A DNA stretch of 64,000 nt from NCBI GenBank assembly GCA_020722005.1, contig DYLP01000011.1, forward strand, positions 1 through 64,000, read 5' to 3'. This document shows positions 25,062 through 59,295 of this stretch, piece by piece. Origin of the DNA: Melioribacter roseus. Its GTDB lineage: Bacteria > Bacteroidota > Ignavibacteria > Ignavibacteriales > Melioribacteraceae. The position numbers and the translations under genes are program-made. How positions within the stretch are numbered: position 1 is the first letter of the stretch; each line of letters starts with the position of its first letter. A model generated the notes under the pieces. It worked only from the letters and a program-made list of their open reading frames with translations. It made no database searches and was not told where the DNA came from.

Positions 25062-25085
25062 AGCCGGCTTTTTTGAGAGCCGGCT
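25062..25085 (-). terminator. Rho-independent terminator of the cytochrome operon
   Basis: AGCCGGCT stem with an 8 nt loop, followed on the minus strand by TTTTTTATT. Confidence 0.85.
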
Positions 25086-25105: not shown

Positions 25106-26107
25106 TTAGAATAAATCGATTTTGCCGTTGATATGCTTTGATTTGTCGATAATGTTGCCGTATTTGTCAACAACTCCTTCATGACAAATACCGCAAGCGC
25201 GTATCTCGTAACTTTCATGACCTGTAGGAGGCAAACCGTGGCATGTCCCGCATGCTGCCTGGCTTCCGTCCACCTGATTCCATTTCGGTGAAAAATTGTT
25301 TCCTGTTATTTTATCTGCTGTATAGACGAACTGATATTCCGAATTTTCTTTTTTGAATTCGAAATTGCCATGACAATAAGTGTTACTACAGGTGTTGTTT
25401 ACAAAATCATACGACGGATTTGAGGGTCCGGAAGAAGAAAGTGCACCAAAGATAACTTCTGCGTGTGGTGTGTTGTCGATGTGTCCCGGAGCTTCGAAGG
25501 TGGTCGGCAGTATATGGCATTCCGTACAGGATACTTGATTAGAAAGCAGGGAAGCATTCAAATGAGCTTGATGTGCCCCGACTGCCGGGTCTGTAGTTTT
25601 TTTTGCATTATTGGTAGCCTGTGGTGGGGCAATATTTCCACCTTTGTAAAAATCGCCGTGACAGGTGTTGCAAGCTTCAGGACCTCCTGCCTTATTATGA
25701 CAATTGATACATTGAGGGCTTGAATATCCTCCGGAATAATCTTCCCCGTGACATTGAGCGCATTGCGATAGATTCCAATTTGTTGCTGCAATAAATCTTC
25801 CGTGAAAATTTTCCGAATTGGGAAGTAAAATTCCATCTACGTGTACATTAATTGCCGGGTGACAATTTACACAGCTGACGCCCGCAGTACCACCCGAATA
25901 ATTCGAAGCATGGCATTGTTTACAGCTCTCCATACTATTATCTGTTAGCTTCTTGCCGTGGAAATTATCGGAGGATGGCGACAAAAATCCCGTACCGTGA
26001 ACACTCAGTTGAGCTGGTGGAGTAATTTCCTCCTGAACGTCGCTGCAGGAAGTTAAGACGATTAGTAGCGATAAAACCAAATAATATTTAATATATTTCA
26101 TAATCAA
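25106..26107 (-). CDS. Outer-membrane-type lipoprotein multiheme cytochrome c (8 CxxCH plus one CX4CH)
   Basis: Lipobox LTSCS; CKQCH, CVNCH, CAQCH, CINCH, CNTCH, CTECH, CSNTYCH, CGTCH, CGICH. Confidence 0.93.
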   Translation of the reverse strand: MIMKYIKYYLVLSLLIVLTSCSDVQEEITPPAQLSVHGTGFLSPSSDNFHGKKLTDNSMESCKQCHASNYSGGTAGVSCVNCHPAINVHVDGILLPNSENFHGRFIAATNWNLSQCAQCHGEDYSGGYSSPQCINCHNKAGGPEACNTCHGDFYKGGNIAPPQATNNAKKTTDPAVGAHQAHLNASLLSNQVSCTECHILPTTFEAPGHIDNTPHAEVIFGALSSSGPSNPSYDFVNNTCSNTYCHGNFEFKKENSEYQFVYTADKITGNNFSPKWNQVDGSQAACGTCHGLPPTGHESYEIRACGICHEGVVDKYGNIIDKSKHINGKIDLF

Positions 26108-26116
26108 CCCAAAAAT

Positions 26117-27322
26117 TTAATTGTGACAATAACTGCAGAAACCAACGCCTTTAATGCCGTCGGGACGAGCATTGGCATCCGTATGACACGAGTAGCATAC
26201 AGAATTAAAGTCGGAATGCCAATCGCCTTCGGAACTGTTCATGAATCCACTCACGTGGGTTTTCGGGTTAGTTCCTTTAACACCGTCGTTATCGACATGG
26301 CATAGAACGCAATTCGGGTCGGCGCCCTGAAGGTCGTGGCATGCAGAACACGATTCAATATCTCTCCTGGCAAGAATTGCGTGTTGTCCACCGCCTGTTC
26401 CAACTCCGATTGTAACAAAGTTCGGCTTTGAATGCGAAGCCGGCATGGTCCCTTCAAGCGCATAATCGCCGCCGCCGTTATTATGGCACTCGGCACAGAA
26501 AGTCTCTACCTGATGGCATGTCTGGCATTCTGTTGACTTGGTGTTTGCGTCGATACCGTGCGAAAAACGATAATTCAAATCATGAACTCGCGTTATCTGT
26601 TGCATCTTTGTGTTGTCTGTAAACTTATGCGGAGAATATGGAACATAAAAATCGGATTCGGAATTTGTCTCTGTCATCATGGTAGTCGAAACGTGACAAT
26701 CCTCGCAGAAACTGTTGTCGTGACACATTTCACAATTATTATCCATTGCCGTTGCTTTGAATTTGTGCGCTTTGAAGAACCCTACCTGCTGATGGTCCTC
26801 CGGAATGAGATTTACAGTTGAAATGTGGCAGACTTCGCAGTCGTTTACAGCTACCGATTTGTTGTTGTGGCATGTAATGCAACTACTCATCGGTGGATTG
26901 ACGCTTTTGGATTCAAAGCCATAATCTACACCGTCTAATCCTTTGTGGCATGTTGTACATTCTATCTTCTGCTCGTTGATATGAAAACTGTGGTTGAATA
27001 TCAACGAACTTTTTGTTTGAATCAGAGGCTCGAAAACTTCTTCATAATGACACATCTGACAATTATCCGTATCCTCAACGTCGTGACAAGTTGCACAAAC
27101 ACTTTTTTCAGGTAATAATCGGTCGTCGAGCTTTGTGCTGCTTGTAACATTGGTATGACACGACGCACAATCTGTTACTTCACTATGAAGCTCGTGAGAA
27201 AATTTAATTATATCTTTGTTGGTTTTACGGGGCTCATTGCCTTTATTCGCATCAATGGCTGCTACAGTAAGAAATACGAATATTAAAAGGCTGAGCGGCA
27301 GATAAATAAATTTAATTTTCAT
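26117..27322 (-). CDS. Multiheme c-type cytochrome, 14 CxxCH, predicted periplasmic
   Basis: Signal peptide and 14 counted CxxCH motifs. Confidence 0.93.
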   Translation of the reverse strand: MKIKFIYLPLSLLIFVFLTVAAIDANKGNEPRKTNKDIIKFSHELHSEVTDCASCHTNVTSSTKLDDRLLPEKSVCATCHDVEDTDNCQMCHYEEVFEPLIQTKSSLIFNHSFHINEQKIECTTCHKGLDGVDYGFESKSVNPPMSSCITCHNNKSVAVNDCEVCHISTVNLIPEDHQQVGFFKAHKFKATAMDNNCEMCHDNSFCEDCHVSTTMMTETNSESDFYVPYSPHKFTDNTKMQQITRVHDLNYRFSHGIDANTKSTECQTCHQVETFCAECHNNGGGDYALEGTMPASHSKPNFVTIGVGTGGGQHAILARRDIESCSACHDLQGADPNCVLCHVDNDGVKGTNPKTHVSGFMNSSEGDWHSDFNSVCYSCHTDANARPDGIKGVGFCSYCHN

Positions 27323-27328
27323 AATGGT

Positions 27329-28594
27329 CTACAAGTTTGTATTAAACAAGTAATTAACTTTGAATAAAACTCTGAAATCGTTTTTGTAAATCTTGTTGTT
27401 GAAATACTGAGTCTGGAAATCGAAGGACAAAATTCTCCATGGTCTGAAATTAATTCCAGCTAGAAGAGCGGTAATTGAATTGGTTTCGTCGTCGCTCGAA
27501 AGTTTATAGCTTGTGTATGTAACTCCGACCGAAGGAGTAATTAATCCTTCGACAAATGACTTTGCTAAATAGAGAGATACGGCGTCGAGTTCTCCTGCGT
27601 CGCCGAAAGTCTTTCTGAACGAAACCGAACCGTACTGAGTAGTAACACCGAGACTCAATCTCGAAGAATTTTCAGAATCGAATTTTACATTTCCATATTT
27701 TACAAAGAGGCGATAGAGACCAGATAATTTATAGTCAAGACCGCCTTCGATTTCCTGCGAATTACCGTAATCAAATACGGAGAATATCGAGTTGTAACGT
27801 ATTCTGGGCTCTCTGTAATTATAATAAAAGTTAAGACCCAGTTTGTCGGTTGCGTTTACTCTTCCGTCAAGTTCGAATTTTGAAGTCACTTCGTAATTCA
27901 AGTCGTATTCGTAACGCGTGCTTACATCGACGAGATTGTTGTACGAATAATAAGCATCGGCAGCTAATAATTTAAATTGATTTGATTTCGATTGAATCAG
28001 GATTGTAATGGGGTCGAGATTCTCGTCGAGGCGTTCAGCATAGTAATCGACCGATTTGAAATTTTTGTCGAAATACGAAATGCCGAGATGAAAATTTTTT
28101 AGTGCAACAGTTTCAAAACGTCCGCCCAAGATATAATCGTTGCTGAGGTCGTCGGTTAATTCGAGCTTTTGATAAGCCGGCAGGTTACCGCCGTAGAAAC
28201 CTGTCAGCGAGAATCCGGCATATTTTAATTTAAGATTAATACCGTCGAAAAGACCACCAGCCACAGGTGTAAACAGAGGCTGCCGTCCAAGTTTAACGGT
28301 GGCAATGCCGAAAAGGTCGCGCGCTTCGAGATAAAGATTGTAAAACCGAACGCGCGGGTCGGCATCGAGAGCATTGCCTAAATTACTTTCAAAATTAAAA
28401 CGAGTACGTAAAGAGAATTTAGAATAATTAGCGTTAAGGTTTAATGCTTGATACGTTCTGAAAAATGTTTCAGATGAACTGGCGGTATTAAATCTTTCAA
28501 ACGAATAAAACGAAGACGTAATTCTGCCGTTGATATTTTGAGCTTCTAATATGAACGGCAAGAATAGAAAAAATATTATTAATAACCTTTTCAT
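27329..28594 (-). CDS. Outer-membrane beta-barrel (porin-like)
   Basis: Signal peptide; alternating amphipathic strands throughout (for example LNANYSKFSLRTRFNFES, GLNFYYNYREPRIRYNSIFS); ends in FRVLFKVNYLFNTNL. Confidence 0.85.
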   Translation of the reverse strand: MKRLLIIFFLFLPFILEAQNINGRITSSFYSFERFNTASSSETFFRTYQALNLNANYSKFSLRTRFNFESNLGNALDADPRVRFYNLYLEARDLFGIATVKLGRQPLFTPVAGGLFDGINLKLKYAGFSLTGFYGGNLPAYQKLELTDDLSNDYILGGRFETVALKNFHLGISYFDKNFKSVDYYAERLDENLDPITILIQSKSNQFKLLAADAYYSYNNLVDVSTRYEYDLNYEVTSKFELDGRVNATDKLGLNFYYNYREPRIRYNSIFSVFDYGNSQEIEGGLDYKLSGLYRLFVKYGNVKFDSENSSRLSLGVTTQYGSVSFRKTFGDAGELDAVSLYLAKSFVEGLITPSVGVTYTSYKLSSDDETNSITALLAGINFRPWRILSFDFQTQYFNNKIYKNDFRVLFKVNYLFNTNL

Positions 28595-28603
28595 GTTCTG
28601 CCT

Positions 28604-29149
28604 TTATTTTTTAGGAACAGGGTGAGCAATTTGAGTCCACATTTTCGCAAAATTGAATTCTTTGTAAGTTGGGCTTTCTTCGTTGTGGCAAGTTTTGCAA
28701 TATTTTTCGATTTCGGTTTCGTCTTTCCAGATTCTCAAACCGTTTTTAATGGCTTCTTCACGATTTTTCATTACTTTCATCGATTTATAATCTTCTCCTG
28801 GACCATGGCATGTTTCGCATTGAACGCCGTCTGCAACAGAGAATTTCTTGCCGAGCAATTTAGGGTCGGCGTCATAACCGCTTGCGTGGCATTTTAGACA
28901 TTTGGGATTTTCAACAGCTTTTACGTCGCCAGAAAGTTTATTTGCTTCTTCTGTCATAAGTGTTTTGTAAGCACTGGCATGTTTACTATTCTGCCATATT
29001 TTTAATTGTTCGCCTTGCTTTTCAGTCTTGTGACACATTCCGCATGATTCTGCTCCAATATAACCGTGACCCTGTGCCTTCGATGTACCGGCAAATAAAA
29101 AGAAACATAATACCACCACCATGGTAATATTGATACCATTTCTAAACAT
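28604..29149 (-). CDS. Tetraheme c-type cytochrome, cytochrome c554-like
   Basis: Signal peptide; CGMCH, CLKCH, CETCH, CKTCH; YIGAESCGMCHKTEKQGEQLKIWQNSKHASAYKTL. Confidence 0.9.
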   Translation of the reverse strand: MFRNGINITMVVVLCFFLFAGTSKAQGHGYIGAESCGMCHKTEKQGEQLKIWQNSKHASAYKTLMTEEANKLSGDVKAVENPKCLKCHASGYDADPKLLGKKFSVADGVQCETCHGPGEDYKSMKVMKNREEAIKNGLRIWKDETEIEKYCKTCHNEESPTYKEFNFAKMWTQIAHPVPKK

Positions 29150-29232: not shown

Positions 29233-31638
29233 TTATCTTTGTTTCTCTCCTTTTACTTCTGTATTTAATTTATTGTCGAGCCATAGTCTAAGTTCGGGGT
29301 CGTTTTCGAGTTCTTTGTCGAAAACAATGTCAGGGTCAAGATTATTTTCTCGTAGCGTTTTAGTAAATAGAAGGGTAGAGTTGCTTAGTCTTTTTTCTTC
29401 TCTTTTGCCAGCTTTATATACTTTCCATTCCAGAAGAACTTTTCTGAAATGTTTTTCGTGATGATGTCTGTAATTCTGGAGTGTCATTTTGCCGTCAATC
29501 CAGGTCAAGCTCATCGGGTATTCATGTGGATGGAAAATAACAAAGAACCAGTGCCATACTAATATTGCAAGAGTAGCAAGAATAGCTTCGTAGAAATGAA
29601 TCAATTCGCTAACTTTAATCAACCATATCGGAGCCCAATCGCCTACAACTGTTGGAAACCAGAGAATAAATCCTGTCGTTCCCATTATTAGAGTGCCCCA
29701 AATTAAAGCCCAGTATTCAGCTTTTTCGGTATAATCGTATTTATCGTAAATCGGTTTTTCTTTATTAACTCTCAAGTAATAAAGTATGGTATCTCTCGCC
29801 TCGATTATGTCGGTATGTTTGGGCAATAAATTTTTGAGAACTTCTCTTCCTCGTGGTGTAAAAAGAAGATAAAAGATGTGATATATGCCTACGCCAATCA
29901 TAACAACGGCAGCACCACGGTGAATATATTGACGAACGGTTTCGGTCATTCCAAAGTACATTAAGAGTTCTGCCCACCAGCTTGTGGAGTATTTAAGTGC
30001 AAAGCCTGTAATTGCCAGAACGATGAACGATATGAACAGTAGAAAATGTTGAACAACTTCGTTCTTTGTAAAGCGAGGTATCGTAATTTCTTTTTCGGTT
30101 CTTTTTTTCTTCTTTTTAATTTCATATAAAAAGATGAGCAGATTGTGCAGAATCATGCCGCCTATAACAGAAATGATCAACCAGAAATAGATATCGGTTA
30201 CAATTTGTTCAACTTTGGCAGCTTTTTCATTTATTGTAACGTGTGAATAACTTTGTGAGAAGACTGGAGTAGCATCAGGATGACATTTTTTACATGTTTC
30301 CGTAACGTTTGATATATTGACAGTGGATTCGGGATGTTCTTTGGGTAAAATCTTATGTACGCCATGGCAATCGACGCACATTGCTGCATCCTTATCGCCG
30401 CGCATAACGGCGAGCCCGTGATAGCTATCCAGGTACGATTTAGCCTTATTCCCGTTTATACCGAAACGTTCGGCAATGAGCGGATTCTCGTGGCAAACCA
30501 TACAAGTTTTTTGCTGTATTTTCCGGGCTTCGAGCCTTTTGTCTTTACCGGAAATTGGATTAATATCGTGTTCGTTATGGCAATCGTTGCAAACGGGTGA
30601 TTCACGGTAGCCTTTTTTTGCTCGAATCCAGTGAATCGATTCCATATATTCTCTGGCTTCTTTTTCGTGGCATTGACCGCATGTTTCAGGCAGATTAAAA
30701 GCTGAAATTTTCGAACCCTGCTGAACTTTATTCTTTATATCGTGAACTCCGTGACATGTTATGCAAGAAGGTCCTTTTTTCCCTTCTTTTATAATCATTC
30801 CGTGAATTGATTGATTATATTTTTTACCCGGGGTAACTAAACCGATGTCGTATTTCTTTGCAAGTTCAGGGTTGTCATGACATTTGCTACACGTAATGCT
30901 GATGTTTACTTGATTTACAGGACTGGATGGGTGATCAATTTTCTTAATATTATGCGAACCGTGGCAATCCCAGCATTTGGCAGCGTCGTCGATACCTTGG
31001 CTGAGTGCAATTCCGTGGATGCTTTCTTTATGCTCCGCTGCAATTTCTACATGGCATACATCGCAATTAGCAATTTCCTTTATTTTTAAATTTTTCGGAT
31101 GTTCCGAAATATTTTGAGCAATGAAACTATGACAATCTGAACATTCGAGTTTGCTATGGACAGAAGTGGGAAGTGTTAATTTCACGTCTTCCTTTTTATG
31201 GCAGCTCAGGCAATTGTCTTTGCTGACATTCTTAGCATGATAACTCGTAAGCAGAGGCTTGGCTTCGTGGCATTTCGAGCAGTAATTTCTTGAATTGACA
31301 GAGAGGGAAGTCGATGGTTTTTTGACATTATGCGAGCCGTGACATGAAACGCATCCAGGAGCGTTCTTAATTTTCAATCTGTGATGGATATCTGTTTCAA
31401 CTGAGGTAATCTTGTCGTCGTGGCAAATTGTACAGTCAACTTTTTTAGCACCTTTGTCTATATGTTCTTCATCAACCACATCCTGGTGACAATCCTGACA
31501 TTCGATAGCTTCGAAATGAACGGATTTTTCGATACTTACTTCATGACAGTCGAGGCAATTAAAATCTTGAGCATTTAATTCATGATTAAATAATATAAAT
31601 AGAGAAAACGCACAAAAAAGAATGGTATTACGAATCAT
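29233..31638 (-). CDS. Fusion of a 16-heme c-type cytochrome with a C-terminal membrane cytochrome b domain (CbcL-like quinone oxidoreductase architecture)
   Basis: 16 CxxCH motifs, then TM helices with conserved His (FTKNEVVQHFLLFISFIVLAITGFALKY, YIHRGAAVVMIGVGIYHIFYLLF, LIHFYEAILATLAILVWHWFFVIFHPHEYP). Confidence 0.9.
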   Translation of the reverse strand: MIRNTILFCAFSLFILFNHELNAQDFNCLDCHEVSIEKSVHFEAIECQDCHQDVVDEEHIDKGAKKVDCTICHDDKITSVETDIHHRLKIKNAPGCVSCHGSHNVKKPSTSLSVNSRNYCSKCHEAKPLLTSYHAKNVSKDNCLSCHKKEDVKLTLPTSVHSKLECSDCHSFIAQNISEHPKNLKIKEIANCDVCHVEIAAEHKESIHGIALSQGIDDAAKCWDCHGSHNIKKIDHPSSPVNQVNISITCSKCHDNPELAKKYDIGLVTPGKKYNQSIHGMIIKEGKKGPSCITCHGVHDIKNKVQQGSKISAFNLPETCGQCHEKEAREYMESIHWIRAKKGYRESPVCNDCHNEHDINPISGKDKRLEARKIQQKTCMVCHENPLIAERFGINGNKAKSYLDSYHGLAVMRGDKDAAMCVDCHGVHKILPKEHPESTVNISNVTETCKKCHPDATPVFSQSYSHVTINEKAAKVEQIVTDIYFWLIISVIGGMILHNLLIFLYEIKKKKKRTEKEITIPRFTKNEVVQHFLLFISFIVLAITGFALKYSTSWWAELLMYFGMTETVRQYIHRGAAVVMIGVGIYHIFYLLFTPRGREVLKNLLPKHTDIIEARDTILYYLRVNKEKPIYDKYDYTEKAEYWALIWGTLIMGTTGFILWFPTVVGDWAPIWLIKVSELIHFYEAILATLAILVWHWFFVIFHPHEYPMSLTWIDGKMTLQNYRHHHEKHFRKVLLEWKVYKAGKREEKRLSNSTLLFTKTLRENNLDPDIVFDKELENDPELRLWLDNKLNTEVKGEKQR

Positions 31639-31879: not shown

Positions 31880-33022
31880 TTATTTTTCAAAAAACGAGCC
31901 CGTAACCAAATACCAGTCTTTATCTTCGAGGTTTTCAATACCGCTGAATGCACCCTCTGAACCGTTTGCTCTTTTGACTTTATCTTTAAAATTTTCAATA
32001 TATCGATCGATTTCTTCCTGATAAAATGCAACGGCGCTTTTTCCGATTTTGAGTTCTGCAAGTTCAGACTCGAGATTTTCAGCATCGAGCACACAAATCC
32101 AATTTTTTCCGTAAGGAGTTATATCGAGCAGGTCGATATTTTCTCTTAGTTCATTATTGATTGCTTTAACCTGCCCGCTTAAAGGTGATGCAAATTTGAT
32201 TACCCGATTTTTTTGAGTTAGACTAAATAATGTTTGTCCTTTTTTAATATTCATACCGAGGTTTGGAAATTCGACATTATCGATTTTACCGACAATTTTT
32301 TTAGTAAAGTCGTCGATTCCAATTCGAGCTGAACCGTCTTCGGTAATTGCAGCCCAACAGTGATTATCCGAAATAAAAACCCCGCCGGGAATCGAGAATT
32401 CACCCTGCCCGATTTTTTCAGTCTCAGGTAAATGAGAAATATGAACTCGTGGCTTGAGTTGCTTTTTAATTTGCTCCTGTCGTTTGATGAGGCATTTTTT
32501 TGTGAAATCGAGGAGTTCATCTTCTGTAAACGGTTTTTGAACGTAATCCATCGCTCCGTATTTCATACATTCAACGGCTGATTCAACGGTGGCATATCCG
32601 GTTATGATTATTACGTCGATATCGGGTCTTAGGTGTTTTATCGTTTTGGTTACTTCTACGCCGTCCATTTCGGGCATTTTCAGATCGGTAAATACGAAAT
32701 CGTAATGATGACTCTGTACAAGAGTAATGGCTTCGGGTCCAGAATTAACAGTGTCAACCGAGTAGCCATCCAGTACCAGTATTTTCCGAAAACTGTCTAA
32801 AACCACGTCTTCATCATCAACACAAAGAATACGAGCCTTCGGGTTTGGAACTTCAGCTCTTTTTAATGTTTTGACTTCTTTGCCGTAGTCGACCTTAATG
32901 ACTTCAGCAAGCACCGCTTCTCTTTCTTTGCGGAGTTTTGCCTCTTCATATTTTTTGATAAATAATCTGATTATTACATCCACAATTATCAAAATGATTA
33001 AAAGTAAAACAAATAATGACAT
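31880..33022 (-). CDS. Membrane-anchored response regulator (TM + REC) fused to a GcvH-like domain
   Basis: N-terminal TM MSLFVLLLIILIIVDVIIRLFI; REC ILCVDDEDVVLDSFRKIL...FTDLKMPEMDG...QKPF; GcvH-like NHCWAAITEDGSARIGIDDFTKKIVGKIDNVEFPNLGMNIKKGQ...SPLSGQVKAIN. Confidence 0.85.
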   Translation of the reverse strand: MSLFVLLLIILIIVDVIIRLFIKKYEEAKLRKEREAVLAEVIKVDYGKEVKTLKRAEVPNPKARILCVDDEDVVLDSFRKILVLDGYSVDTVNSGPEAITLVQSHHYDFVFTDLKMPEMDGVEVTKTIKHLRPDIDVIIITGYATVESAVECMKYGAMDYVQKPFTEDELLDFTKKCLIKRQEQIKKQLKPRVHISHLPETEKIGQGEFSIPGGVFISDNHCWAAITEDGSARIGIDDFTKKIVGKIDNVEFPNLGMNIKKGQTLFSLTQKNRVIKFASPLSGQVKAINNELRENIDLLDITPYGKNWICVLDAENLESELAELKIGKSAVAFYQEEIDRYIENFKDKVKRANGSEGAFSGIENLEDKDWYLVTGSFFEK

Positions 33023-33046
33023 CTCTATTTCTCCTCTTGTTAAAAA

Positions 33047-33865
33047 TTATCTGTCGGAACTACACTGGATTAAATTTTCCATTTCATCTTTTATGTTCGT
33101 TGGAATCACTTTATAAAACCATCCTTCGAAATACGGGTCTTTTTCGATCAATTCAGGATTTTCAATGAGCTTTTCGTTGCGGTCGATTATTCGACAGCTA
33201 AGCGGCATGATAAAAGAATGGGTTAAACCGTCGTTGTCTGTAATATAAGCCGAGAATGCCGCCTGTGAAATTTTATCGTTTATTTGAAGCAGCTCAATTT
33301 TTCTAACCCCTTCAGTTAGTTTTACAAACAAGTCCGTCACTCCTGTAACAAAACTTCCATAGCTAAATCCTTCGCTGATGATATTAACTTGCAAATCTTG
33401 CTTTATCCACGAATTATACCCGAATCGATAGTACTTAGAAGGACAGGACACATAGAGCAAATTGTTTTGGTCTTGAACTTTTTTACGATTCAGATTGCTG
33501 TAGGTTATGCCTCTTTTGATAATGGCAGAAAGTTCGTCGATTGTAAAAGGTTTGGGAAGAAAATCGAACGCCCCGAGCTTTATCGATTTAACCGCCATCT
33601 CCGGTGTTGTATAACCGGTAATCATTATTACGGGAGATTCATATCCGATAGAGCCGAGCGATTTTAAGATTTCAAAACCGTCTTTGTCGGGCAGCATAAT
33701 ATCGCAGATAACCAGTCTGTATTTATTTTGTTTTATTTTTTGTATTGCAATATCATAAGTCTCAGCAGAATCAGCCGTCAGATTATTGAGTTTACAAATT
33801 TTCATAATCGAGTCTATAATGACCGATTCGTCGTCGATAATCAATATATCGAAATCGTTATTCAT
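33047..33865 (-). CDS. Response regulator (REC) fused to a divergent GcvH-like domain
   Basis: REC ILIIDDESVIIDSI...CDIMLPDKDG...PKPF; C-terminal NEKLIENPELIEKDPYFEGWFYKVIPTN resembles the GcvH segment [24 protein letters not shown]. Start chosen at MNNDFDILIID. Confidence 0.8.
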   Translation of the reverse strand: MNNDFDILIIDDESVIIDSIMKICKLNNLTADSAETYDIAIQKIKQNKYRLVICDIMLPDKDGFEILKSLGSIGYESPVIMITGYTTPEMAVKSIKLGAFDFLPKPFTIDELSAIIKRGITYSNLNRKKVQDQNNLLYVSCPSKYYRFGYNSWIKQDLQVNIISEGFSYGSFVTGVTDLFVKLTEGVRKIELLQINDKISQAAFSAYITDNDGLTHSFIMPLSCRIIDRNEKLIENPELIEKDPYFEGWFYKVIPTNIKDEMENLIQCSSDR

Positions 33866-35750
33866 AATTTTCAGCCGGAAGTTTAATTGAAAAAGTAGTT
33901 CCTTTGCCAGGTTCACTCTTAACTGAAATTGTACCATCGTGATTGTCGATTATTCCCCAAACTACGGATAATCCAAGTCCTGTTCCTTTTTGTCCTTTGG
34001 TAGTAAAGAAGGGTTCGAATATGTGAGTTAAATGTTCCTGCGGAATACCACATCCGTCGTCTGAAATTTCAATCTCGACAAATTTTCTGACTCCGGAATT
34101 GTCAATTCTTTCCCACCTCTGCCAGTCGTCGTTAAATGAAGCACACATTTCTACATAGCCTTTGCCAGGTACTTCGAATTTGAAGACGGGTCCGCCACAA
34201 ACCGGACACTTTAGATTCCGGTCAATCAACGATATGTCGCATACCGGACAGTGAATACTTATGCGAGAATTTTTTTCAATAGGTATTCCGAAGTAATGTT
34301 GTGCTCTGCCGTAAATCGGGTCGATGAATACGTTCCCTTCGTTTTCGCCCGATTTTATTTTTACTCGAATGGAAGACATTCCGGCTATTTTATTTTCGTT
34401 GTCGATCAAATTGTGATTCTTTGGACAAAGTGCCGCTTTGATATGCGTATATCCTTTAGGAGGCAACGAAAGTTGTTTTGTCTTGATTACAATTTCTCCT
34501 CCTTTTTTGCCGATTGCGTCGATTGCATTTAAAATAAGGTTTAACAGTACCTGCTGAGTTTGATTCTGATCGGCTGCAATTTGCGGTAAATTATTGTCGA
34601 ATATTTTTGTCAGTTTTATATTATTGAGAGACAGCTGGTTATGTACGACCGATTCGGTCCTTTTGATAATTTCGTTGATATTAATTAGATTTTTTTTAGG
34701 TGACGATTGTCTGGAAAAATCGAGAAGGCTTCTTACGATATCTCGGCAGCGGATAGTTTCCCTAACAATTACCTGTAGGTCTTCCTGCAATTCTGGATTG
34801 TCCTTAGCTCGTTTCATTAAATAGCTGCTGTATGTTAGTACTCCTGTTAAAGGATTGTTTATTTCATGTGCCACGCCGGCAGCCAGCTTGCCCAGAGAAG
34901 CCATTTTATCCGATTGGAATAATTGCTGTTGAGTTTCGTAAAGTTTTTTTGTCATGTTATTGAAGGATTTTGCAAGGTATCCCAATTCATCTTTACCTAT
35001 CTCTTTAATTTCATAAGTTAAATTTCCGGCGGCAATCTGATTGGTTGCTTTAACTAATTCTTTAACAGGATGGTCGACCCATCTTTTGACAAAAATGCTT
35101 ATGATTATCCCAATTGAAAGAATCGATACGATTGTAAAAATCAATTCCTGTATCTCGTTTTGTTTAATAGTTTCGTCGATTTCTTCGAGAGATATTGTAA
35201 TATCGAGGACACCCAGAACCGAGGCATTCTTGGGGTGTGCATGGCATTCGGCTTCGTAACACGATTTCTCATTGAAAATTGGATTTATTATTCCCATAAT
35301 TCTCGGACTCTTGTCGCCGAGTTTGAAAATTCGCGTTCTCTGTTTTATCGGAAGACGTTCAAGCGGCTTATTCTCGGCATGGCAGGCGTAACAACTTTCG
35401 GCTTTTTTATCGAGCATTTTGCCGAGGTCTTTCGAATTGCTTGAATAAATTATTCTGCCTTCTTTATTGTAAATTCTGATATTGTCGATCGTTTTGTCCT
35501 GCCCGATAGTCTTTACAATTTCGTCTACATATTCTCTTTGATTGAGCAACATTCCGTAACGTGTGCTGTTTTTAATAGTTTCACTGAGCTGATTGGCATG
35601 ACGTTCAACCTCGGCAAGGAGGCAATTAGTTTGATAATTAATTTTGATATAGGCATAAATTCCTATTATCGAAACGACAGTAAGACTAACAATCAGAATT
35701 AATTTCAATCCGATCTTTCTGAAAAACTGAATTTCATTAAGTCCGTTCAT
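33858..35750 (-). CDS. Sensor histidine kinase with periplasmic heme-c-motif sensor domain, HAMP, HisKA and an interrupted HATPase
   Basis: ESCYACHAENK and CYEAECHAHP in the extracytoplasmic region; HAMP; GVAHEINNPLTGVLTY H-box; NLILNAIDAI N-box; DDGCGIP; KGTGLGLSVV. Confidence 0.93.
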   Translation of the reverse strand: MNGLNEIQFFRKIGLKLILIVSLTVVSIIGIYAYIKINYQTNCLLAEVERHANQLSETIKNSTRYGMLLNQREYVDEIVKTIGQDKTIDNIRIYNKEGRIIYSSNSKDLGKMLDKKAESCYACHAENKPLERLPIKQRTRIFKLGDKSPRIMGIINPIFNEKSCYEAECHAHPKNASVLGVLDITISLEEIDETIKQNEIQELIFTIVSILSIGIIISIFVKRWVDHPVKELVKATNQIAAGNLTYEIKEIGKDELGYLAKSFNNMTKKLYETQQQLFQSDKMASLGKLAAGVAHEINNPLTGVLTYSSYLMKRAKDNPELQEDLQVIVRETIRCRDIVRSLLDFSRQSSPKKNLININEIIKRTESVVHNQLSLNNIKLTKIFDNNLPQIAADQNQTQQVLLNLILNAIDAIGKKGGEIVIKTKQLSLPPKGYTHIKAALCPKNHNLIDNENKIAGMSSIRVKIKSGENEGNVFIDPIYGRAQHYFGIPIEKNSRISIHCPVCDISLIDRNLKCPVCGGPVFKFEVPGKGYVEMCASFNDDWQRWERIDNSGVRKFVEIEISDDGCGIPQEHLTHIFEPFFTTKGQKGTGLGLSVVWGIIDNHDGTISVKSEPGKGTTFSIKLPAENYE

Positions 35751-36841
35751 CGTTTAACTACCTTTCCGGGTTTATTTTGCGGATACGATTTATCGTCGTG
35801 ACAATTATTACAGCTCCTTTCCTGATAAGTCGGCTCGGTATGGCAATTTTCACATTCGAATTCAACGTGAGTTTCGTCGAGAATTAATCCGGTTACCTTG
35901 TGATCGAAATTATCTGTAGTCCAGATGCCGTGACAGTTTTTACATTCTTTTTTGAGTCCTGTATATTTACCTTTGGTTACGTGGCATCTGGAACATTTTA
36001 ATTCGGAATGGAATTTAGAAATATCGAATCCGGTGCGTTGTTTATGATTGAACACCGGTTTTTCGACATTCGAATGACATAAGTTGCAAGATTTTTTATC
36101 CTCCGTGTCGTGGCATTTATTGCACTTCGAATGAAGTATTGCTGGAGATTGTTTAAGCGCAGATTTATTCGTTGCATGGCATTTTACACAGCTCTCGTTT
36201 TTATGGCAGTCGCTACACTCGAATCCAAAAATTTTATTGTGTTCTTCGTGATAAAATGTTACCAGTTTGCCGCCGGTAAAATTTGTATTATATACTTTCT
36301 TTATCGGTGCCTTAATTTCAGGATGTATTGATTTTTTGTTAATTGATTTAAGTGTCAAATCTTCTTGCATGCCGGCGGGTTTATGGCAGCTTATACATTC
36401 AATTTCGCCGCTCCATTCTCGATGGCATGAAATACAAAGACGATGGTATGCGGCTTTGAGGTCGGGTTTGCTGATATCGATTCGCTTACGTTGAGGGCTG
36501 TGACATTTTGAGCAACTAATTATATTCCCAGGCGGATTGTAATGATGGCAAATTCTGCAGTCGCCTGACATAATCGACATATCCGAATGTGCATAATGGT
36601 CGAATATCGACGGTCCATACAAATTAGTTTCTTTTATCCTGTCGATTTTAATTATTCGTGGCGCTTCCTCCGGTTTTTGATTTATTCGAATTAACTCTTC
36701 TCTTGGACACTCTCCTAAGCACGGATTCTCCTTCGTTGGAATATCGCATGAATGGCACGTTTTACATTCTAAGTTTAATTTAGAATGTTGTGCATACAGA
36801 ATTAGAGGCGTCAGCAATAAAACTAATATTATTTTTTTCAT
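35747..36841 (-). CDS. Multiheme c-type cytochrome, 13 CxxCH (Hmc/Cbc-like)
   Basis: Signal peptide and 13 counted CxxCH motifs; adjacent to NrfD and ferredoxin genes. Confidence 0.93.
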   Translation of the reverse strand: MKKIILVLLLTPLILYAQHSKLNLECKTCHSCDIPTKENPCLGECPREELIRINQKPEEAPRIIKIDRIKETNLYGPSIFDHYAHSDMSIMSGDCRICHHYNPPGNIISCSKCHSPQRKRIDISKPDLKAAYHRLCISCHREWSGEIECISCHKPAGMQEDLTLKSINKKSIHPEIKAPIKKVYNTNFTGGKLVTFYHEEHNKIFGFECSDCHKNESCVKCHATNKSALKQSPAILHSKCNKCHDTEDKKSCNLCHSNVEKPVFNHKQRTGFDISKFHSELKCSRCHVTKGKYTGLKKECKNCHGIWTTDNFDHKVTGLILDETHVEFECENCHTEPTYQERSCNNCHDDKSYPQNKPGKVVKR

Positions 36842-38076
36842 TATTTACCTCTGATAAAAAATTTAGTTTTAGAAGTCAAAGGCTGCGGTACAGAGACAAT
36901 CGGGAATATCATAACAAAAGTACGGAACAGAAGTATTTCAAGTGCTACAAAACCGAGAGTTACAAGTATCTCTCCGATTGAGGGGAAGTATGGTGTGAAT
37001 TTATACGGTGGATTGTAGGCTATTATAAAATTATTTATTCTGTTCAAGAGTACACCAAGTATAACAAGAGCCGAGCCAATAAAAAGTCCTGCACGGGTTT
37101 TGGTAAGTTTGGGTGAAATAAATATTCTTAGCGGAACTATAATGCCAAAGATAATTTCGATTAGGAAAAGAATACTTGCGGTGTTTAGTTCATTCAGATA
37201 AACAAAAGTTTGGCGAATTACCATGTCTCCGAGTTTAAATGCCAGATAAATGCCCAATAAAGGAGCAATCATAGTACCGAGATTTGAAAGGACTTTCATC
37301 TCAGGTTTTAGTCCGAAAGATTTGGAAGTAATCAGAGACTCGAAAATTACCATTGGAAAACCAACCGAGATTGCCGAGAGGAGAAAGAGAAGAGGTAGTA
37401 TTGGAGTTTGCCAGAGGGGGTGCATTTTCGGACCGGCAATTACCATTAATGTGCCGAGTGACGATTGATGCAAACACGAAAGAACCACTCCTGCAATTAT
37501 AAATATGAACATAGTTTTGTCGAGAGTTTTATCGAGTATTCTTAGCAGAGAATCGACTGGTTTGTTTAATACAGAAAGGAAACCCGGCAAACTTACTCTG
37601 CCGATAAATCTTTCGGTAACTATCGGTATAAATTCAATATAGAGAACTGTCAAATATGCCATAACGCACATACCGACTTCGAATAATACGGAGTTTCCGT
37701 TCCACATAATGAGAGGATGCCATATATAATACCAGCGACCGAGATCCATAGCAACGCTGAGCGCCACAAAAGTATATCCCAGCAAGGCAGTAAGCAGAGC
37801 GGGTCGAACAATGGCGTGATATTCCTCTTTGTGCATTATATGACCCAAAGCGGCAGTAGTAAATCCACCTGCAGCCAGTGCAACTCCGGCTGCAACGTCA
37901 ATTCCAATCCAGATTCCCCACGGATACTGATTACTTAAATTGGTCACAGCTCCAAGCCCGAAGAATAATCTTGCCAGTAAAAACAAAATTCCTATTGTGG
38001 CAAATACAAAAATGACAATTACTCCGGGAGTAAAATATTTAGTCTTAAGCGGAGTCGGTTTCATAAAATCTTCCAT
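36841..38076 (-). CDS. NrfD/PsrC-family membrane subunit (quinone-interacting)
   Basis: Polytopic; NQYPWGIWIGIDVAAGVALAAGGFTTAALGHIM, MDLGRWYYIWHPLIMWNGNSVLFEVGMCVMAYLTVLYIEF. Confidence 0.92.
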   Translation of the reverse strand: MEDFMKPTPLKTKYFTPGVIVIFVFATIGILFLLARLFFGLGAVTNLSNQYPWGIWIGIDVAAGVALAAGGFTTAALGHIMHKEEYHAIVRPALLTALLGYTFVALSVAMDLGRWYYIWHPLIMWNGNSVLFEVGMCVMAYLTVLYIEFIPIVTERFIGRVSLPGFLSVLNKPVDSLLRILDKTLDKTMFIFIIAGVVLSCLHQSSLGTLMVIAGPKMHPLWQTPILPLLFLLSAISVGFPMVIFESLITSKSFGLKPEMKVLSNLGTMIAPLLGIYLAFKLGDMVIRQTFVYLNELNTASILFLIEIIFGIIVPLRIFISPKLTKTRAGLFIGSALVILGVLLNRINNFIIAYNPPYKFTPYFPSIGEILVTLGFVALEILLFRTFVMIFPIVSVPQPLTSKTKFFIRGK

Positions 38077-38978
38077 TATTCTTCCCCCTCTTCTGATTTT
38101 TTACGATTTTTATTTATCCACATTACGCCACCAAGTAAAGCATAGAGCGCAATTGGAGGCAGAAAATAGGCGAATACCCCGTGTTGAATTGCTTCTGTAA
38201 CGCCTGGTGCGGGACTGTTCCCCAGTTTAGGAAATTGTAAATCCTCAAATTTTCTGCTTGCAAGATAAAGCCAGGCTGTGCCTCCTACTTCTGTTTCACC
38301 GTAAATATGATTAATGTATCTGTCGGGATAAAGTTCGATTTTACGCCGCGCAATGTCAATCAAATCTTTTCGTCTGCCGTAGGTGAGTGCTTCCATTGGA
38401 CAAATTTCGACACAAGCGGGGAGTTTTCCTTCTTTAGTTCGACTGAAACAAAAGTCGCATTTTTTTATTTCGGGTTGAATTGCTTTATGAAATTCAAAAG
38501 ACGGAATTTGGAATGGGCAGGCAACCATGCAATATCGGCAGCCGATGCATTTACTCGAGTCCCAGATTACGCTCCCGTTTTCCTCTTTCGAAAAGGCGCC
38601 AACAATACATGCCGATACGCAAGCGGGATGGTCGCAATGCATACATTGTACTTTTACGTCGATTGGGAATTCGGGATAGTCATCGAATTCATATTCATTT
38701 ACAACGGTCAAAGAAGTATGATCGGGCCGACGCATTTTTTTCATGACTTCTCTATTGTCGTAAGATTCAAGTGGAGTAGTAGGCATATTGTGAGCTGTTT
38801 TGCAAGCCCATTCACATTTCCGGCATCCTACACATACAGTTGTATCAACCAGTACACCCATCCTGTCTTCAGATAAAATGTTTTTAGGAGCAGCATCCGT
38901 CTTTTTAGGTAGTCCTGCAATTACAGAACCTGCGACAGCTGCCGTTTTAATGAAGTTTCTTCTTGTTTGCTTCGACAT
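38076..38978 (-). CDS. TAT-exported 4Fe-4S ferredoxin subunit with C-terminal TM anchor (HybA/HmcB-like)
   Basis: TAT signal QTRRNFIKTAAVAGSVIAG; CVGCRKCEWAC, CMHCDHPACVSAC, CIGCRYCMVAC; C-terminal TM helix. Confidence 0.93.
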   Translation of the reverse strand: MSKQTRRNFIKTAAVAGSVIAGLPKKTDAAPKNILSEDRMGVLVDTTVCVGCRKCEWACKTAHNMPTTPLESYDNREVMKKMRRPDHTSLTVVNEYEFDDYPEFPIDVKVQCMHCDHPACVSACIVGAFSKEENGSVIWDSSKCIGCRYCMVACPFQIPSFEFHKAIQPEIKKCDFCFSRTKEGKLPACVEICPMEALTYGRRKDLIDIARRKIELYPDRYINHIYGETEVGGTAWLYLASRKFEDLQFPKLGNSPAPGVTEAIQHGVFAYFLPPIALYALLGGVMWINKNRKKSEEGEE

Positions 38979-43512: not shown

Positions 43513-45909
43513 ATGAATTATGGTAGTTTTTCCGAGGACGGTAAAGAGTATATTATCACCAATGTTAAAACCCCTACTCCATGGTTAAATTATATTTATA
43601 ACGGCGAATATTTTTCTACTGTGTCAAACAATGCAGGAGGGATCAGTTATATTAAGAGCCCGTTGCACGGTAGAATTACGAGATACAGAATTAATGACGT
43701 GCCTCCCGACAGACCTGGGAAATATATATATGTAAAAGACGAAGAAACCGGAAAATTTTGGACCTTGAGCTGGCAACCTGCTGGCGCTGATCCCGAAGCT
43801 TATAAGGTTATCCATGGTTTAGGGTACACTATAATCGAATCGTTTGTGGAAGGTATTCATGCAAGAGTTACTTATTTTGTGCCTTTGAATAATAATCATG
43901 AAATCTGGAATATTGTTCTTACTAATAAATCCGGGAAAAAACGTCGTTTATCCTTAACGGGCTATGTTGAGTTTGCCCTGGGGCATGGACTTATTGACCT
44001 TATCAATCAGTGTGACGACCAGCATTTTAATAGGGCATATTTTGATAATAATTTAAATTCCATTTTTGCCACCAAGACCTACTGGGTTACAGAGACTAAC
44101 GGTACTCAGCAACAGGAAAATAAAGAGTGGAATCAATGGGCTTTCTTTACATCTAATCTGCCGATTGAAAATTATGAAACCTTGCGTGAAAGATTCCTTG
44201 GCTTCTATAATAATGAATCGAATCCAATAGCTATTACTGATGACAAATTTTCTAACTCGAATACAGATTTTGGGAATGTTGTGGGTGCCATTAATGTAAA
44301 AGTAGTTATGGGAGCGGAAACTCAGCAGGACGTAATTTTTTCATTAGGTGTTATTCCTAAAGAAATATTTAATGAACGGAAAAAAGATATCCCCAAAATT
44401 ATACAAAAAGATTATATCGAAAATGCTTTCCACGAAATTCAAAATTATTGGTCAAAATTCCTCGAGCACACTCATGTCGAAACCCCGGATCATAATGTAA
44501 ATATATTTATGAATAATTGGGTGCCGTACCAGGCTAAAGTAGCTTTTGATGTGGGTAGAGTAGCTAGCTATTATTATTGGGGAATTAGCAGAGGATACGG
44601 TTTTCGGGATACTTCCCAGGATATAATAGCAGTTACAATTGCGCATCCAGAAAAAGCAAAGGAGCGTATTTTTCTCTTGTCACGACAAATGTTTTCTGAT
44701 GGTCGGGTATATCATCATTTTTATGACGACGGGAAAGGAGAATTGACCCGTCATTGCGATGACCCCGGTTGGTACATTCTCGTTGTAACCGAATATATTA
44801 AAGAAACAGGCGACAATTCAATTTTGCAGGAAAAAGTTCCTTTCGTAGATAAAAAAGACGGTACAGTTCTGGAGCATTTACTCTCGGTGGTTAATTTTAT
44901 GAAAAATAATCTGGGACGTCACAGTTTACCTGTTTTCGGACGTGGTGACTGGAACGATACACTGGATTATATTGGTGGCGAAGACGGAGGAGAAAGTGTA
45001 TGGGGTGCTATGTTCTATGTCGCAATGCTCAATCAATTAATTGAACTTTTTCAATTTCTTAAAATTAATAACATAACAGAAATTGTTAAATTACGTGATG
45101 TGATAAGGAAAAATATTGACCAATATTGCTGGGACGGTGAATGGTTTATTAGAGCTTTTGGAAACGGCGGAATGGTCATCGGCTCCAGTAGGTCAGATGA
45201 AGGAAAAATATTTATAAATACTCAAAGCTGGGCAGCAATCTCCAATCTACCTGATAAAGAAAAAGTGAAAAAATCGCTTGACAGCGTTAAGAAACATCTC
45301 GATAGCGAGTATGGACCGAAAATTTGTGCCCCTGCTTTTAAAGAAATCAATCCAAATATCGGTTTAGTTACCAGATGTGTACCTGGCAAAAAAGAAAACG
45401 GAGCCGTTTTTTGTCATCCTGTAACTTGGTTAATACAAGCAGAATGTATTATGAGAAATGGGAATAGAGCCTATGATTATTTCAGTAAACTACTACCGAA
45501 CCGCATTGACTCGGATATTTATCAAGCAGAACCGTATGTCTATTCTCAATATATAACCAGCAATGAACATTCTTCTCCCGGGAAAGCAAGCCATTCCTGG
45601 CAAACCGGTACGGCTGCCTGGATGTACAGAATCTTTTATGATTATATTACCGGGATAAGACCTGATTACGACGGCTTAATTATCGATCCCGTAATACCTA
45701 GCTGGTGGGATTTCATCCGCGTTGAACGAGTATTCAGAGGAACTAAATATATTATCGAAGTGGAAAATCCTGATTGTGTTCAATCGGGTATCTCTTGCAT
45801 TATGATTGACGGTAAAGAAATTGAAGGAAATAAATTGCCTTTGACAGATAAAAAAATCTGCCATGTAAAAGTATTAATGAGCAAAACTATAGAAGCTACC
45901 AATAAATAG
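43513..45909 (+). CDS. GH94 family glycoside phosphorylase (cellobiose/chitobiose phosphorylase-like)
   Basis: YFSTVSNNAGGISYIKSPLHGRITRYR, YYWGISRGYGFRDTSQDI, GRGDWNDTLD, SHSWQTGTAAWMYR; no signal peptide. Confidence 0.87.
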   Translation: MNYGSFSEDGKEYIITNVKTPTPWLNYIYNGEYFSTVSNNAGGISYIKSPLHGRITRYRINDVPPDRPGKYIYVKDEETGKFWTLSWQPAGADPEAYKVIHGLGYTIIESFVEGIHARVTYFVPLNNNHEIWNIVLTNKSGKKRRLSLTGYVEFALGHGLIDLINQCDDQHFNRAYFDNNLNSIFATKTYWVTETNGTQQQENKEWNQWAFFTSNLPIENYETLRERFLGFYNNESNPIAITDDKFSNSNTDFGNVVGAINVKVVMGAETQQDVIFSLGVIPKEIFNERKKDIPKIIQKDYIENAFHEIQNYWSKFLEHTHVETPDHNVNIFMNNWVPYQAKVAFDVGRVASYYYWGISRGYGFRDTSQDIIAVTIAHPEKAKERIFLLSRQMFSDGRVYHHFYDDGKGELTRHCDDPGWYILVVTEYIKETGDNSILQEKVPFVDKKDGTVLEHLLSVVNFMKNNLGRHSLPVFGRGDWNDTLDYIGGEDGGESVWGAMFYVAMLNQLIELFQFLKINNITEIVKLRDVIRKNIDQYCWDGEWFIRAFGNGGMVIGSSRSDEGKIFINTQSWAAISNLPDKEKVKKSLDSVKKHLDSEYGPKICAPAFKEINPNIGLVTRCVPGKKENGAVFCHPVTWLIQAECIMRNGNRAYDYFSKLLPNRIDSDIYQAEPYVYSQYITSNEHSSPGKASHSWQTGTAAWMYRIFYDYITGIRPDYDGLIIDPVIPSWWDFIRVERVFRGTKYIIEVENPDCVQSGISCIMIDGKEIEGNKLPLTDKKICHVKVLMSKTIEATNK

Positions 45910-45917
45910 AGCTATAT

Positions 45918-46877
45918 ATGCTAGTCAAATATGAACAGAATCCTATTATAACGAGGAAAAACATCCCCGTTGTCAATCCACATTTGAGGGATGTCTCTTC
46001 GGTTTTTAATCCAGGCGCAATTAAATTTAATGATAAATATCTGCTTATCCTCAGAGTCCAATCCAGGGGCAGGGAAACTTTTCTTATGAAAGCTGTAAGC
46101 GATAATGGAGCTAATTTTGAAGTTGATAATTCTGTCATTAAATTTGATGGAATAGAGAAAATTAAAGATAAGATATATCATACCTATGATGCCAGAATTA
46201 CTAAAATAGAGACCTATTATTATCTAATGTTTGCAATGGATATGGATAGTGGTTGCCGACTCGGACTGGCAAGAACAGAAGACTTTGATAAGTATGAATT
46301 TCTGGGCATCGTTTCACAAGACGATTCCAGGAATGGAGTTCTTTTCCCTGAAAAAATTAACGGCAAGTTTTTACGTTTTGAACGACCTAACAGTGTAAAA
46401 CTTAAAGGAGGGCCATCAACAGGAAATACAATTTATTTATCTGAATCCGACGACCTCATTAATTGGAAATATGTAGAACCAGTTATGTCGGGAAGATTTC
46501 ATTATTGGGACGAAAATATCGGTTCAGGTCCCCCGCCTATTAAAACAAAAGAAGGCTGGATCCATATTTATCATGGCGTGGCAACTCATTTTTCCAGCTC
46601 GAATATATATCAAGCCGGAGTTTCGTTGCACGAGCTCAACAATCCTGCAAAGGTAATTGCACGCAGCAGTTTAAATATTCTGGAGCCTCGAGAAATATAC
46701 GAAACGGTCGGACAGGTTCAGAATGTTTGTTTCCCTTCGGGTATGATTGTCGAAAAATATGAGAACGGATTTGCCGCGCTCGACAGCAAAGTGTTTGTCT
46801 ATTATGGCGCTGCCGATACAGTCGTGGCGCTTGCCTTTACGACAATAAAGGAGCTTATTGATGCTGCGAAGATTTAA
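45918..46877 (+). CDS. GH130 family beta-mannoside phosphorylase/hydrolase
   Basis: VFNPGAIKFNDKYLLILRVQSRGRETF, TYDARITKI, FERPNSV, HYWDENIGSGPPPIKTKEGWIHIYHG; no signal peptide. Confidence 0.88.
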   Translation: MLVKYEQNPIITRKNIPVVNPHLRDVSSVFNPGAIKFNDKYLLILRVQSRGRETFLMKAVSDNGANFEVDNSVIKFDGIEKIKDKIYHTYDARITKIETYYYLMFAMDMDSGCRLGLARTEDFDKYEFLGIVSQDDSRNGVLFPEKINGKFLRFERPNSVKLKGGPSTGNTIYLSESDDLINWKYVEPVMSGRFHYWDENIGSGPPPIKTKEGWIHIYHGVATHFSSSNIYQAGVSLHELNNPAKVIARSSLNILEPREIYETVGQVQNVCFPSGMIVEKYENGFAALDSKVFVYYGAADTVVALAFTTIKELIDAAKI

Positions 46878-47958: not shown

Positions 47959-47962
47959 AATT

Positions 47963-49294: not shown

Positions 49295-49297
49295 TAC

Positions 49298-51883: not shown

Positions 51884-52058
51884 TAAAAATGCTTAAGTTT
51901 ATTCATAAGTAAAATTAATTGATTCGATTAGAATCGTATAAACAAAAAAATATGCACATTATTATTTTTATTGCAAGTTATTTTTATTAAGTTTATTTTT
52001 ATCACGAAAAAACAAAGAGATATTAACAGGCTGCGTTCTTAATAAGTGAGAGGTAAAA

Positions 52059-55019: not shown

Positions 55020-55074
55020 AAAATTTTTGCCCATTAAGCGGCTTAAACTATATCACAATAATAGGAGGTATGAT

Positions 55075-56853: not shown

Positions 56854-56874
56854 CCTCCTTCAGATGCAAAAATA

Positions 56875-56903
56875 AGCCAGCCGCAAAGAATTGACGGCTG
56901 GCT
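56875..56903 (+). terminator. Hairpin terminator downstream of the T9SS cargo gene
   Basis: AGCCAGCCG ... CGGCTGGCT stem, 11 nt loop, followed by GATTATTATATTT. Confidence 0.7.
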
Positions 56904-56938
56904 GATTATTATATTTACAAATCGATTAAATAAATAAT

Positions 56939-58141: not shown

Positions 58142-58167
58142 TACTAAGAATAAACAAAGAGAAAATC

Positions 58168-59277: not shown

Positions 59278-59295
59278 AATAAATGCAGGAGAATC

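What the first reader, a model, noticed from the sequence alone, without database searches (positions are those of the whole stretch)
25106..29149. Candidate porin-cytochrome outer-membrane conduit
Consecutive genes encode a tetraheme cytochrome, an OM beta-barrel, a 14-heme signal-peptide cytochrome and a heme lipoprotein with lipobox LTSCS. This matches the logic of known porin plus periplasmic cytochrome plus surface lipoprotein cytochrome conduits, while heme numbers and sequences do not obviously match the Shewanella Mtr or Geobacter Pcc proteins I can recall.
Basis: partly seen in the sequence, partly recalled or inferred. Interest (0 to 1): 0.72.

Follow-up and report, generated by a model that had tools for sequence, protein, structure and literature searches.

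The report
Known Ignavibacteria porin-cytochrome electron conduit
Four adjacent genes encode the parts of an electrical wire through a bacterium's outer membrane (an outer-membrane barrel, a 14-heme cytochrome, a surface-type heme lipoprotein and a small tetraheme carrier); the same gene set was described in this bacterial group in 2014, so it is real but not new.

Summary
On the minus strand, in transcription order, lie a tetraheme c554-type cytochrome, a 421-aa outer-membrane beta-barrel (model pLDDT 82.7, about 22-24 strands), a 401-aa 14-heme cytochrome, and a lipoprotein with 8 CxxCH plus one invariant CX4CH. They are 6-9 bases apart and end at a strong terminator-like hairpin. The interpretation, a porin-cytochrome (Pcc) conduit, is well supported but not novel. 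Shi et al. 2014 (PMC4245776) described the same cluster in Ignavibacterium album: IALB_1838 (400 aa, 14 hemes), IALB_1839 (porin), IALB_1837 (outer-membrane cytochrome with an atypical heme motif), IALB_1840 (periplasmic cytochrome). Later papers state that Melioribacter roseus has a Geobacter-like pcc cluster. By its relatives the window is from Melioribacteraceae, probably Melioribacter. The barrel gene is in 66 of 80 genomes of its family and 187 of 296 of its class, essentially always followed by the 11-14-heme cytochrome and the lipoprotein. It is not Mtr: no MtrB, MtrA or MtrC match reaches a cut-off. Function and sidedness are inferred, not shown.

The parts
28604..29149 (-). Tetraheme c554-type periplasmic cytochrome (181 aa, signal peptide, 4 CxxCH); probable periplasmic shuttle; counterpart of IALB_1840 by gene order
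   Evidence: (PF13435, 73.8 bits, cut-off 20.8)
27329..28594 (-). Outer-membrane beta-barrel (421 aa, signal peptide, no heme motif), porin-like sleeve; counterpart of IALB_1839
   Evidence: pLDDT 82.7, about 22-24 strands; AlgE, ushers and other OM barrels; no Pfam, NCBIfam or PDB sequence match
26117..27322 (-). 14-heme periplasmic c7-type cytochrome (401 aa, signal peptide); counterpart of IALB_1838 (400 aa, 14 hemes)
   Evidence: heme cysteines and histidines largely invariant in 26 orthologues; best PDB profile match 3ov0, E 1e-20
25106..26101 (-). Lipoprotein multiheme cytochrome (lipobox LTSCS, 8 CxxCH + 1 CX4CH; two copies of a diheme unit in front of a conserved core); presumed surface terminus; counterpart of IALB_1837
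   Evidence: PF09698; TIGR01904, 54.8 bits, cut-off 27
25062..25085 (-). Terminator-like hairpin (8 pairs, then T run) just after the lipoprotein gene
29233..31638 (-). CbcL/MtrH/MtoC-like inner-membrane protein: 16 CxxCH domain fused to a b-type cytochrome (Ni_hydr_CYTB); probable quinol oxidase, first gene of the same likely transcription unit
   Evidence: (PF01292, 53.3 bits, cut-off 30.1); family described in PMC6295460
31848..31871 (-). Terminator-like hairpin separating the upstream unit from the cbcL-like unit
31880..33022 (-). Receiver domain fused to a GcvH-like domain (380 aa)
   Evidence: PF00072, PF01597
33047..33937 (-). Second receiver + GcvH-like protein; listed ORF of 296 aa, true start probably further in
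   Evidence: PF00072 91.6 bits, PF01597 44.3 bits
33858..35750 (-). Sensor histidine kinase with a CYACH motif and a CX4CH motif in its predicted periplasmic region
   Evidence: two membrane segments, 9-39 and 199-227, enclose the motifs
35747..36841 (-). 13-heme class III (c3-type) periplasmic cytochrome
   Evidence: PF02085, 57.4 bits, cut-off 22.9
36841..38076 (-). NrfD-type membrane subunit, HybB/HmcC-like
   Evidence: PF03916; PRK10881 365 bits against cut-off 450; HmcC 267.6 against 550
38076..38978 (-). Tat-type Fe-S subunit, HmcB/HybA-like
   Evidence: (HmcB 331 bits against cut-off 420)

Best explanation
This is the Ignavibacteria-type porin-cytochrome (Pcc) conduit. The CbcL-like inner-membrane protein takes electrons from quinol into its 16-heme periplasmic domain. 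The tetraheme cytochrome, and perhaps the 13-heme one, carries them across the periplasm. The 14-heme cytochrome plugs the 421-aa barrel and conducts them through the outer membrane. The 9-heme lipoprotein on the outer face hands them to an extracellular acceptor such as Fe(III) or a partner. Shown by sequence: the genes, motifs, signal peptides, barrel fold and conserved linkage. Inferred: complex formation, the route of electrons, orientation of the lipoprotein, direction of flow and acceptor.
For: Heme motifs far above chance. The barrel model is confident and matches outer-membrane barrels. The 14-heme cytochrome and lipoprotein follow the barrel in essentially every genome examined, over many families of the class. 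Genes are 6-9 bp apart and end at a terminator-like hairpin. A CbcL-like quinol-oxidase candidate heads the same likely unit. The cluster matches IALB_1837-1840 in order, size and heme number, described as pcc. Melioribacter roseus is reported to have a pcc system and to reduce Fe(III).
Against: No biochemical data for any Ignavibacteria cluster was found. The barrel has no sequence match in Pfam, NCBIfam or the PDB. The model of the 14-heme cytochrome failed (pLDDT 43), so insertion into the barrel could not be checked. Lipoprotein sidedness is unknown. I. album carries the cluster but, per Shi et al., does not reduce solid Fe(III)/Mn(IV) oxides.
Confidence: 0.87

Rival explanations
1. The conduit is real but works mainly with soluble or partner-cell acceptors, or inward as an electron-uptake path, rather than in mineral Fe(III) reduction.
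For: Shi et al. note that I. [quoted passage not shown] CbcL/MtrH/MtoC proteins occur in both reducers and Fe(II) oxidisers; the cluster's barrel is in 187 of 296 genomes of the class, very common for a specialised mineral respiration.
Against: Melioribacter roseus, of the probable same genus, is reported to reduce Fe(III).
Confidence: 0.3
2. The barrel is an ordinary porin or exporter and the cytochromes form a purely periplasmic redox chain, with the lipoprotein on the inner leaflet of the outer membrane.
For: Best structural neighbours include the alginate exporter AlgE and substrate-specific porins; lipoprotein sidedness is unproven.
Against: Invariant adjacency of barrel, 11-14-heme cytochrome and lipoprotein over the class, and the same arrangement as characterised Pcc clusters. 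Neighbours by fold are general OM barrels with TM-scores of only about 0.3-0.5.
Confidence: 0.08
3. A member of the Shewanella-type MtrCAB family.
For: Same logic; the 14-heme cytochrome gives weak profile similarity to MtrC/OmcA-type domains (Pfam PF22113; 6r2q_C E 1e-4).
Against: No match to MtrB in Pfam or among PDB sequences; no DmsE/MtrA-family match for the 14-heme protein; OmcA/MtrC family score 17.5 against a cut-off of 209.
Confidence: 0.02

Closest known systems
Ignavibacterium album pcc cluster IALB_1837-1840 (Shi et al. 2014, PMC4245776)
   Same: Same gene types in the same order: periplasmic cytochrome, porin, 400-aa 14-heme cytochrome, OM cytochrome with an atypical heme motif
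   Different: None found beyond sequence divergence. The I. album record itself was not identified by name here; same-order genomes (L130, L131) and Ignavibacterium sp. records (L088, L097, L100) show the same cluster, with the tetraheme protein at 51-54% blastp identity.
Melioribacter roseus pcc system (stated in PMC7399161 and PMC6137239)
   Same: Probably the same genus; the complete same-genus genome G051 has a 94% identical barrel and the whole gene series
   Different: Few percent sequence differences only; G051 carries no name, so its identity with M. roseus is inferred from family and genome size
Geobacter sulfurreducens OmbB-OmaB-OmcB (Pcc)
   Same: Porin + periplasmic multiheme cytochrome + outer-membrane multiheme cytochrome, adjacent genes
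   Different: Heme numbers 14 and 9 here against 8 and 12; Shi et al. place the I. album porin and periplasmic cytochrome outside their five phylogenetic groups
Shewanella MtrCAB
   Same: Functional logic only
   Different: No homologous barrel detected; MtrB is described with 28 strands and MtrA with 10 hemes
CbcL/MtrH/MtoC quinol oxidase family (PMC6295460)
   Same: N-terminal multiheme domain plus b-type cytochrome membrane domain; 16 hemes lie within the published range of 3-23
   Different: My hydropathy scan shows four clear membrane segments against six usually predicted

Membership tests
Pcc (porin-cytochrome) cluster | Adjacent genes for a porin-like OM protein, a periplasmic multiheme cytochrome and usually an OM multiheme cytochrome | tested here: met
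   conserved over the class
Pcc (porin-cytochrome) cluster | Barrel smaller than MtrB, 18-22 predicted strands (Shi et al. 2014) | tested here: met
   421 aa; model shows about 22 long strands, 24 if a short hairpin is counted
Pcc (porin-cytochrome) cluster | Periplasmic cytochrome with 5-14 hemes | tested here: met
   14 CxxCH, signal peptide, no lipobox
Pcc (porin-cytochrome) cluster | Detectable sequence homology of the porin to OmbB | not testable with these tools
   No OmbB sequence could be fetched. The literature reports BLAST or HMM similarity for Ignavibacteria porins.
Pcc (porin-cytochrome) cluster | Complex reconstituted in liposomes moves electrons across a bilayer | not testable with these tools
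   Needs biochemistry
Mtr (MtrCAB) | MtrB/PioB-family barrel | tested here: not met
   No Pfam match; a profile of 26 orthologues matches no MtrB chain in the PDB
Mtr (MtrCAB) | MtrA/DmsE-family decaheme cytochrome | tested here: not met
   The 14-heme protein has no TIGR03508 match up to E 0.1
Mtr (MtrCAB) | OmcA/MtrC-family surface cytochrome | tested here: not met
   The lipoprotein has no TIGR03507 match; it is a CxxxxCH/CxxCH (TIGR01904) protein
CbcL/MtrH/MtoC | N-terminal multiheme c domain fused to a b-type cytochrome of formate dehydrogenase/hydrogenase type | tested here: met
   16 CxxCH; PF01292 over 526-704 above cut-off
CbcL/MtrH/MtoC | Six transmembrane helices | tested here: inconclusive
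   Four clear hydrophobic segments in a simple scan
Hmc complex | HmcA/B/C above NCBIfam cut-offs | tested here: not met
   HmcB 331 against 420, HmcC 268 against 550, HmcA 38 against 400 bits: Hmc-like only

The most novel reading that the evidence does not exclude
The Ignavibacteria conduit is a lineage-specific Pcc family whose surface lipoprotein is an extendable heme ladder. A fixed core of 7 heme sites (5 behind one diheme unit) is preceded by a variable number of further roughly 54-residue diheme units, giving 7, 9, 11, 13, 15, 17 and up to 29 sites in different genomes, so cells would tune the reach of the wire by tandem duplication. The conduit would be wired to, and controlled by, an Hmc-like complex with unusual receiver-GcvH proteins.
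Probability: 0.25. Interest if true: 0.45.

Novelty: already known. Interest (0 to 1): 0.2.

Why it matters
Extracellular electron transfer in Ignavibacteria bears on iron cycling in hot springs, aquifers and bioanodes. The result shows that the conduit is a near-core trait of Melioribacteraceae (66 of 80 genomes of the family) and widespread in the class (187 of 296), and it gives its full genomic context. It does not open a new kind of system.

Tried and rejected
Mtr membership was rejected by profile. A direct OmbB comparison was not possible: no Geobacter sequence was reachable, and the plasmid collection gave no match. The structure model of the 14-heme cytochrome failed (pLDDT 43) and was not used. 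The PDB profile search with the barrel gave only chance matches. The lipoprotein profile matched PDB chains only weakly, E 0.016 or worse. A paper search for receiver-GcvH fusions found nothing relevant.

Full report
What is there. Four minus-strand genes at 29149-25106 encode a 181-aa tetraheme cytochrome, a 421-aa protein without heme motifs, a 401-aa 14-heme cytochrome and a lipoprotein with 8 CxxCH plus one CX4CH. Shuffled sequences of the same composition give 0.02-0.14 CxxCH on average and never more than two. The genes are 6-9 bases apart. A terminator-like hairpin lies at 25085-25062, just after the lipoprotein gene. The lipoprotein probably starts at the ATG at 26101, as in its orthologues.

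The barrel. It has no match in Pfam, NCBIfam or PDB sequences. AlphaFold2 on 26 orthologues gives mean pLDDT 82.7 and a continuous series of about 22 long strands, 24 if a short hairpin counts. Foldseek matches it to outer-membrane barrels, led by AlgE and usher pores, at TM-scores of about 0.3-0.5. That fixes the class of fold but no specific family.

The cytochromes. The 14-heme protein is built of cytochrome c7-type domains. Its best PDB profile match is 3ov0 (E 1e-20), listed there as 'Cytochrome c family protein', which I recall as a Geobacter dodecaheme c7 protein. Its heme motifs are almost all invariant in 26 orthologues. The lipoprotein belongs to the CxxxxCH/CxxCH group (TIGR01904, PF09698). 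Its lipobox cysteine and its CX4CH motif are invariant in 25 orthologues. The tetraheme protein is of the cytochrome c554 family.

Surroundings. The gene upstream, at 31638, encodes a 16-heme domain fused to a b-type cytochrome, like the CbcL/MtrH/MtoC quinol oxidases. A second terminator-like hairpin at 31871-31848 separates it from an upstream unit. That unit encodes HmcB/HybA-like and HmcC/HybB-like subunits, a 13-heme cytochrome, a histidine kinase with heme motifs in its predicted periplasmic region, and two receiver-GcvH proteins. The likely unit for the conduit is therefore cbcL-like, tetraheme, barrel, 14-heme, lipoprotein.

Distribution. The barrel is in 66 of 80 genomes of the family and, by profile, in 187 of 296 genomes of the class, 95 of 151 genera. 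Named relatives are Melioribacter, Melioribacteraceae, Stygiobacter and Ignavibacterium records. In 133 of 137 barrel copies in the fetched loci (some genomes were fetched twice) the multiheme cytochrome follows directly. Two exceptions end at the contig edge and one within about 400 bases of it; the fourth, L156, shows it in the gene map. Heme number of the cytochrome is 14 in 115 of 131 intact copies and 11-13 in the rest.

Lipoprotein variation. Total heme sites are mostly odd: 7 in 65 copies, 9 in 32, 11 in 12, then 13, 15, 17 and 29. This fits a 7-site basic form plus added diheme units. In L032 the protein has 28 CxxCH plus one CX4CH and a 54-residue repeat period. The window's copy has two units. 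The extension is seen directly in sequence; its function is unknown.

Comparison with what is known. Shi et al. 2014 describe in I. album the porin IALB_1839, the 400-aa 14-heme periplasmic cytochrome IALB_1838, the outer-membrane cytochrome IALB_1837 with an atypical heme motif and the associated periplasmic cytochrome IALB_1840. Order, lengths and heme numbers fit the window. Two later papers say that M. roseus has a Geobacter-like pcc system, and one adds that it reduces Fe(III). Mtr membership fails at the level of each family tested. Whether the porin descends from the same ancestor as OmbB could not be tested here.

Mechanism. I commit to quinol, CbcL-like protein, tetraheme shuttle, 14-heme wire in the barrel, surface lipoprotein, external acceptor, at 0.87 for the conduit as such. 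Direction, acceptor and sidedness are inferred. I. album is said not to reduce solid Fe(III)/Mn(IV) oxides despite having the cluster, so the acceptor may differ between species.

Verdict.

Noticed in passing
window 31880-33937 (minus strand): Two consecutive response regulators carry a receiver domain fused to a GcvH-like (glycine cleavage H) domain instead of a DNA-binding output; both are conserved with the Hmc-like module in the family. By eye no lysine is strictly conserved at the expected lipoylation position. One paper search found nothing on such fusions.
   Followed up: partly
window 25106-26101; L032:1145-3769; L099, L115, L031: The lipoprotein cytochrome varies by whole diheme units of about 54 residues; heme sites run 7, 9, 11, 13, 15, 17 and up to 29 across genomes.
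   Followed up: yes
window 33858-35750: Histidine kinase with CYACH and CX4CH motifs between its two membrane segments, suggesting a heme-based periplasmic redox sensor next to the electron-transfer genes; conserved in the family.
   Followed up: partly
L024, L026-L031, L035, L037, L042: Many relatives have an extra pair between the regulators and the cbcL-like gene: a 19-23-heme cytochrome and a separate b-type cytochrome. The window and its same-genus relative L021 lack it.
   Followed up: partly
L025 340-2474; L024 17496-19266: In several relatives the conduit is followed by a CcsA-like membrane protein and a HemA-like glutamyl-tRNA reductase (read by eye from the sequences), fitting heme supply; absent downstream in the window.
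   Followed up: partly
window 43513-61638 (plus strand): A run of genes that looks like a glycan-use locus: glycoside phosphorylase and glycosidases, a TonB-dependent receptor, a transporter and a sugar kinase. Read by eye only.
   Followed up: no
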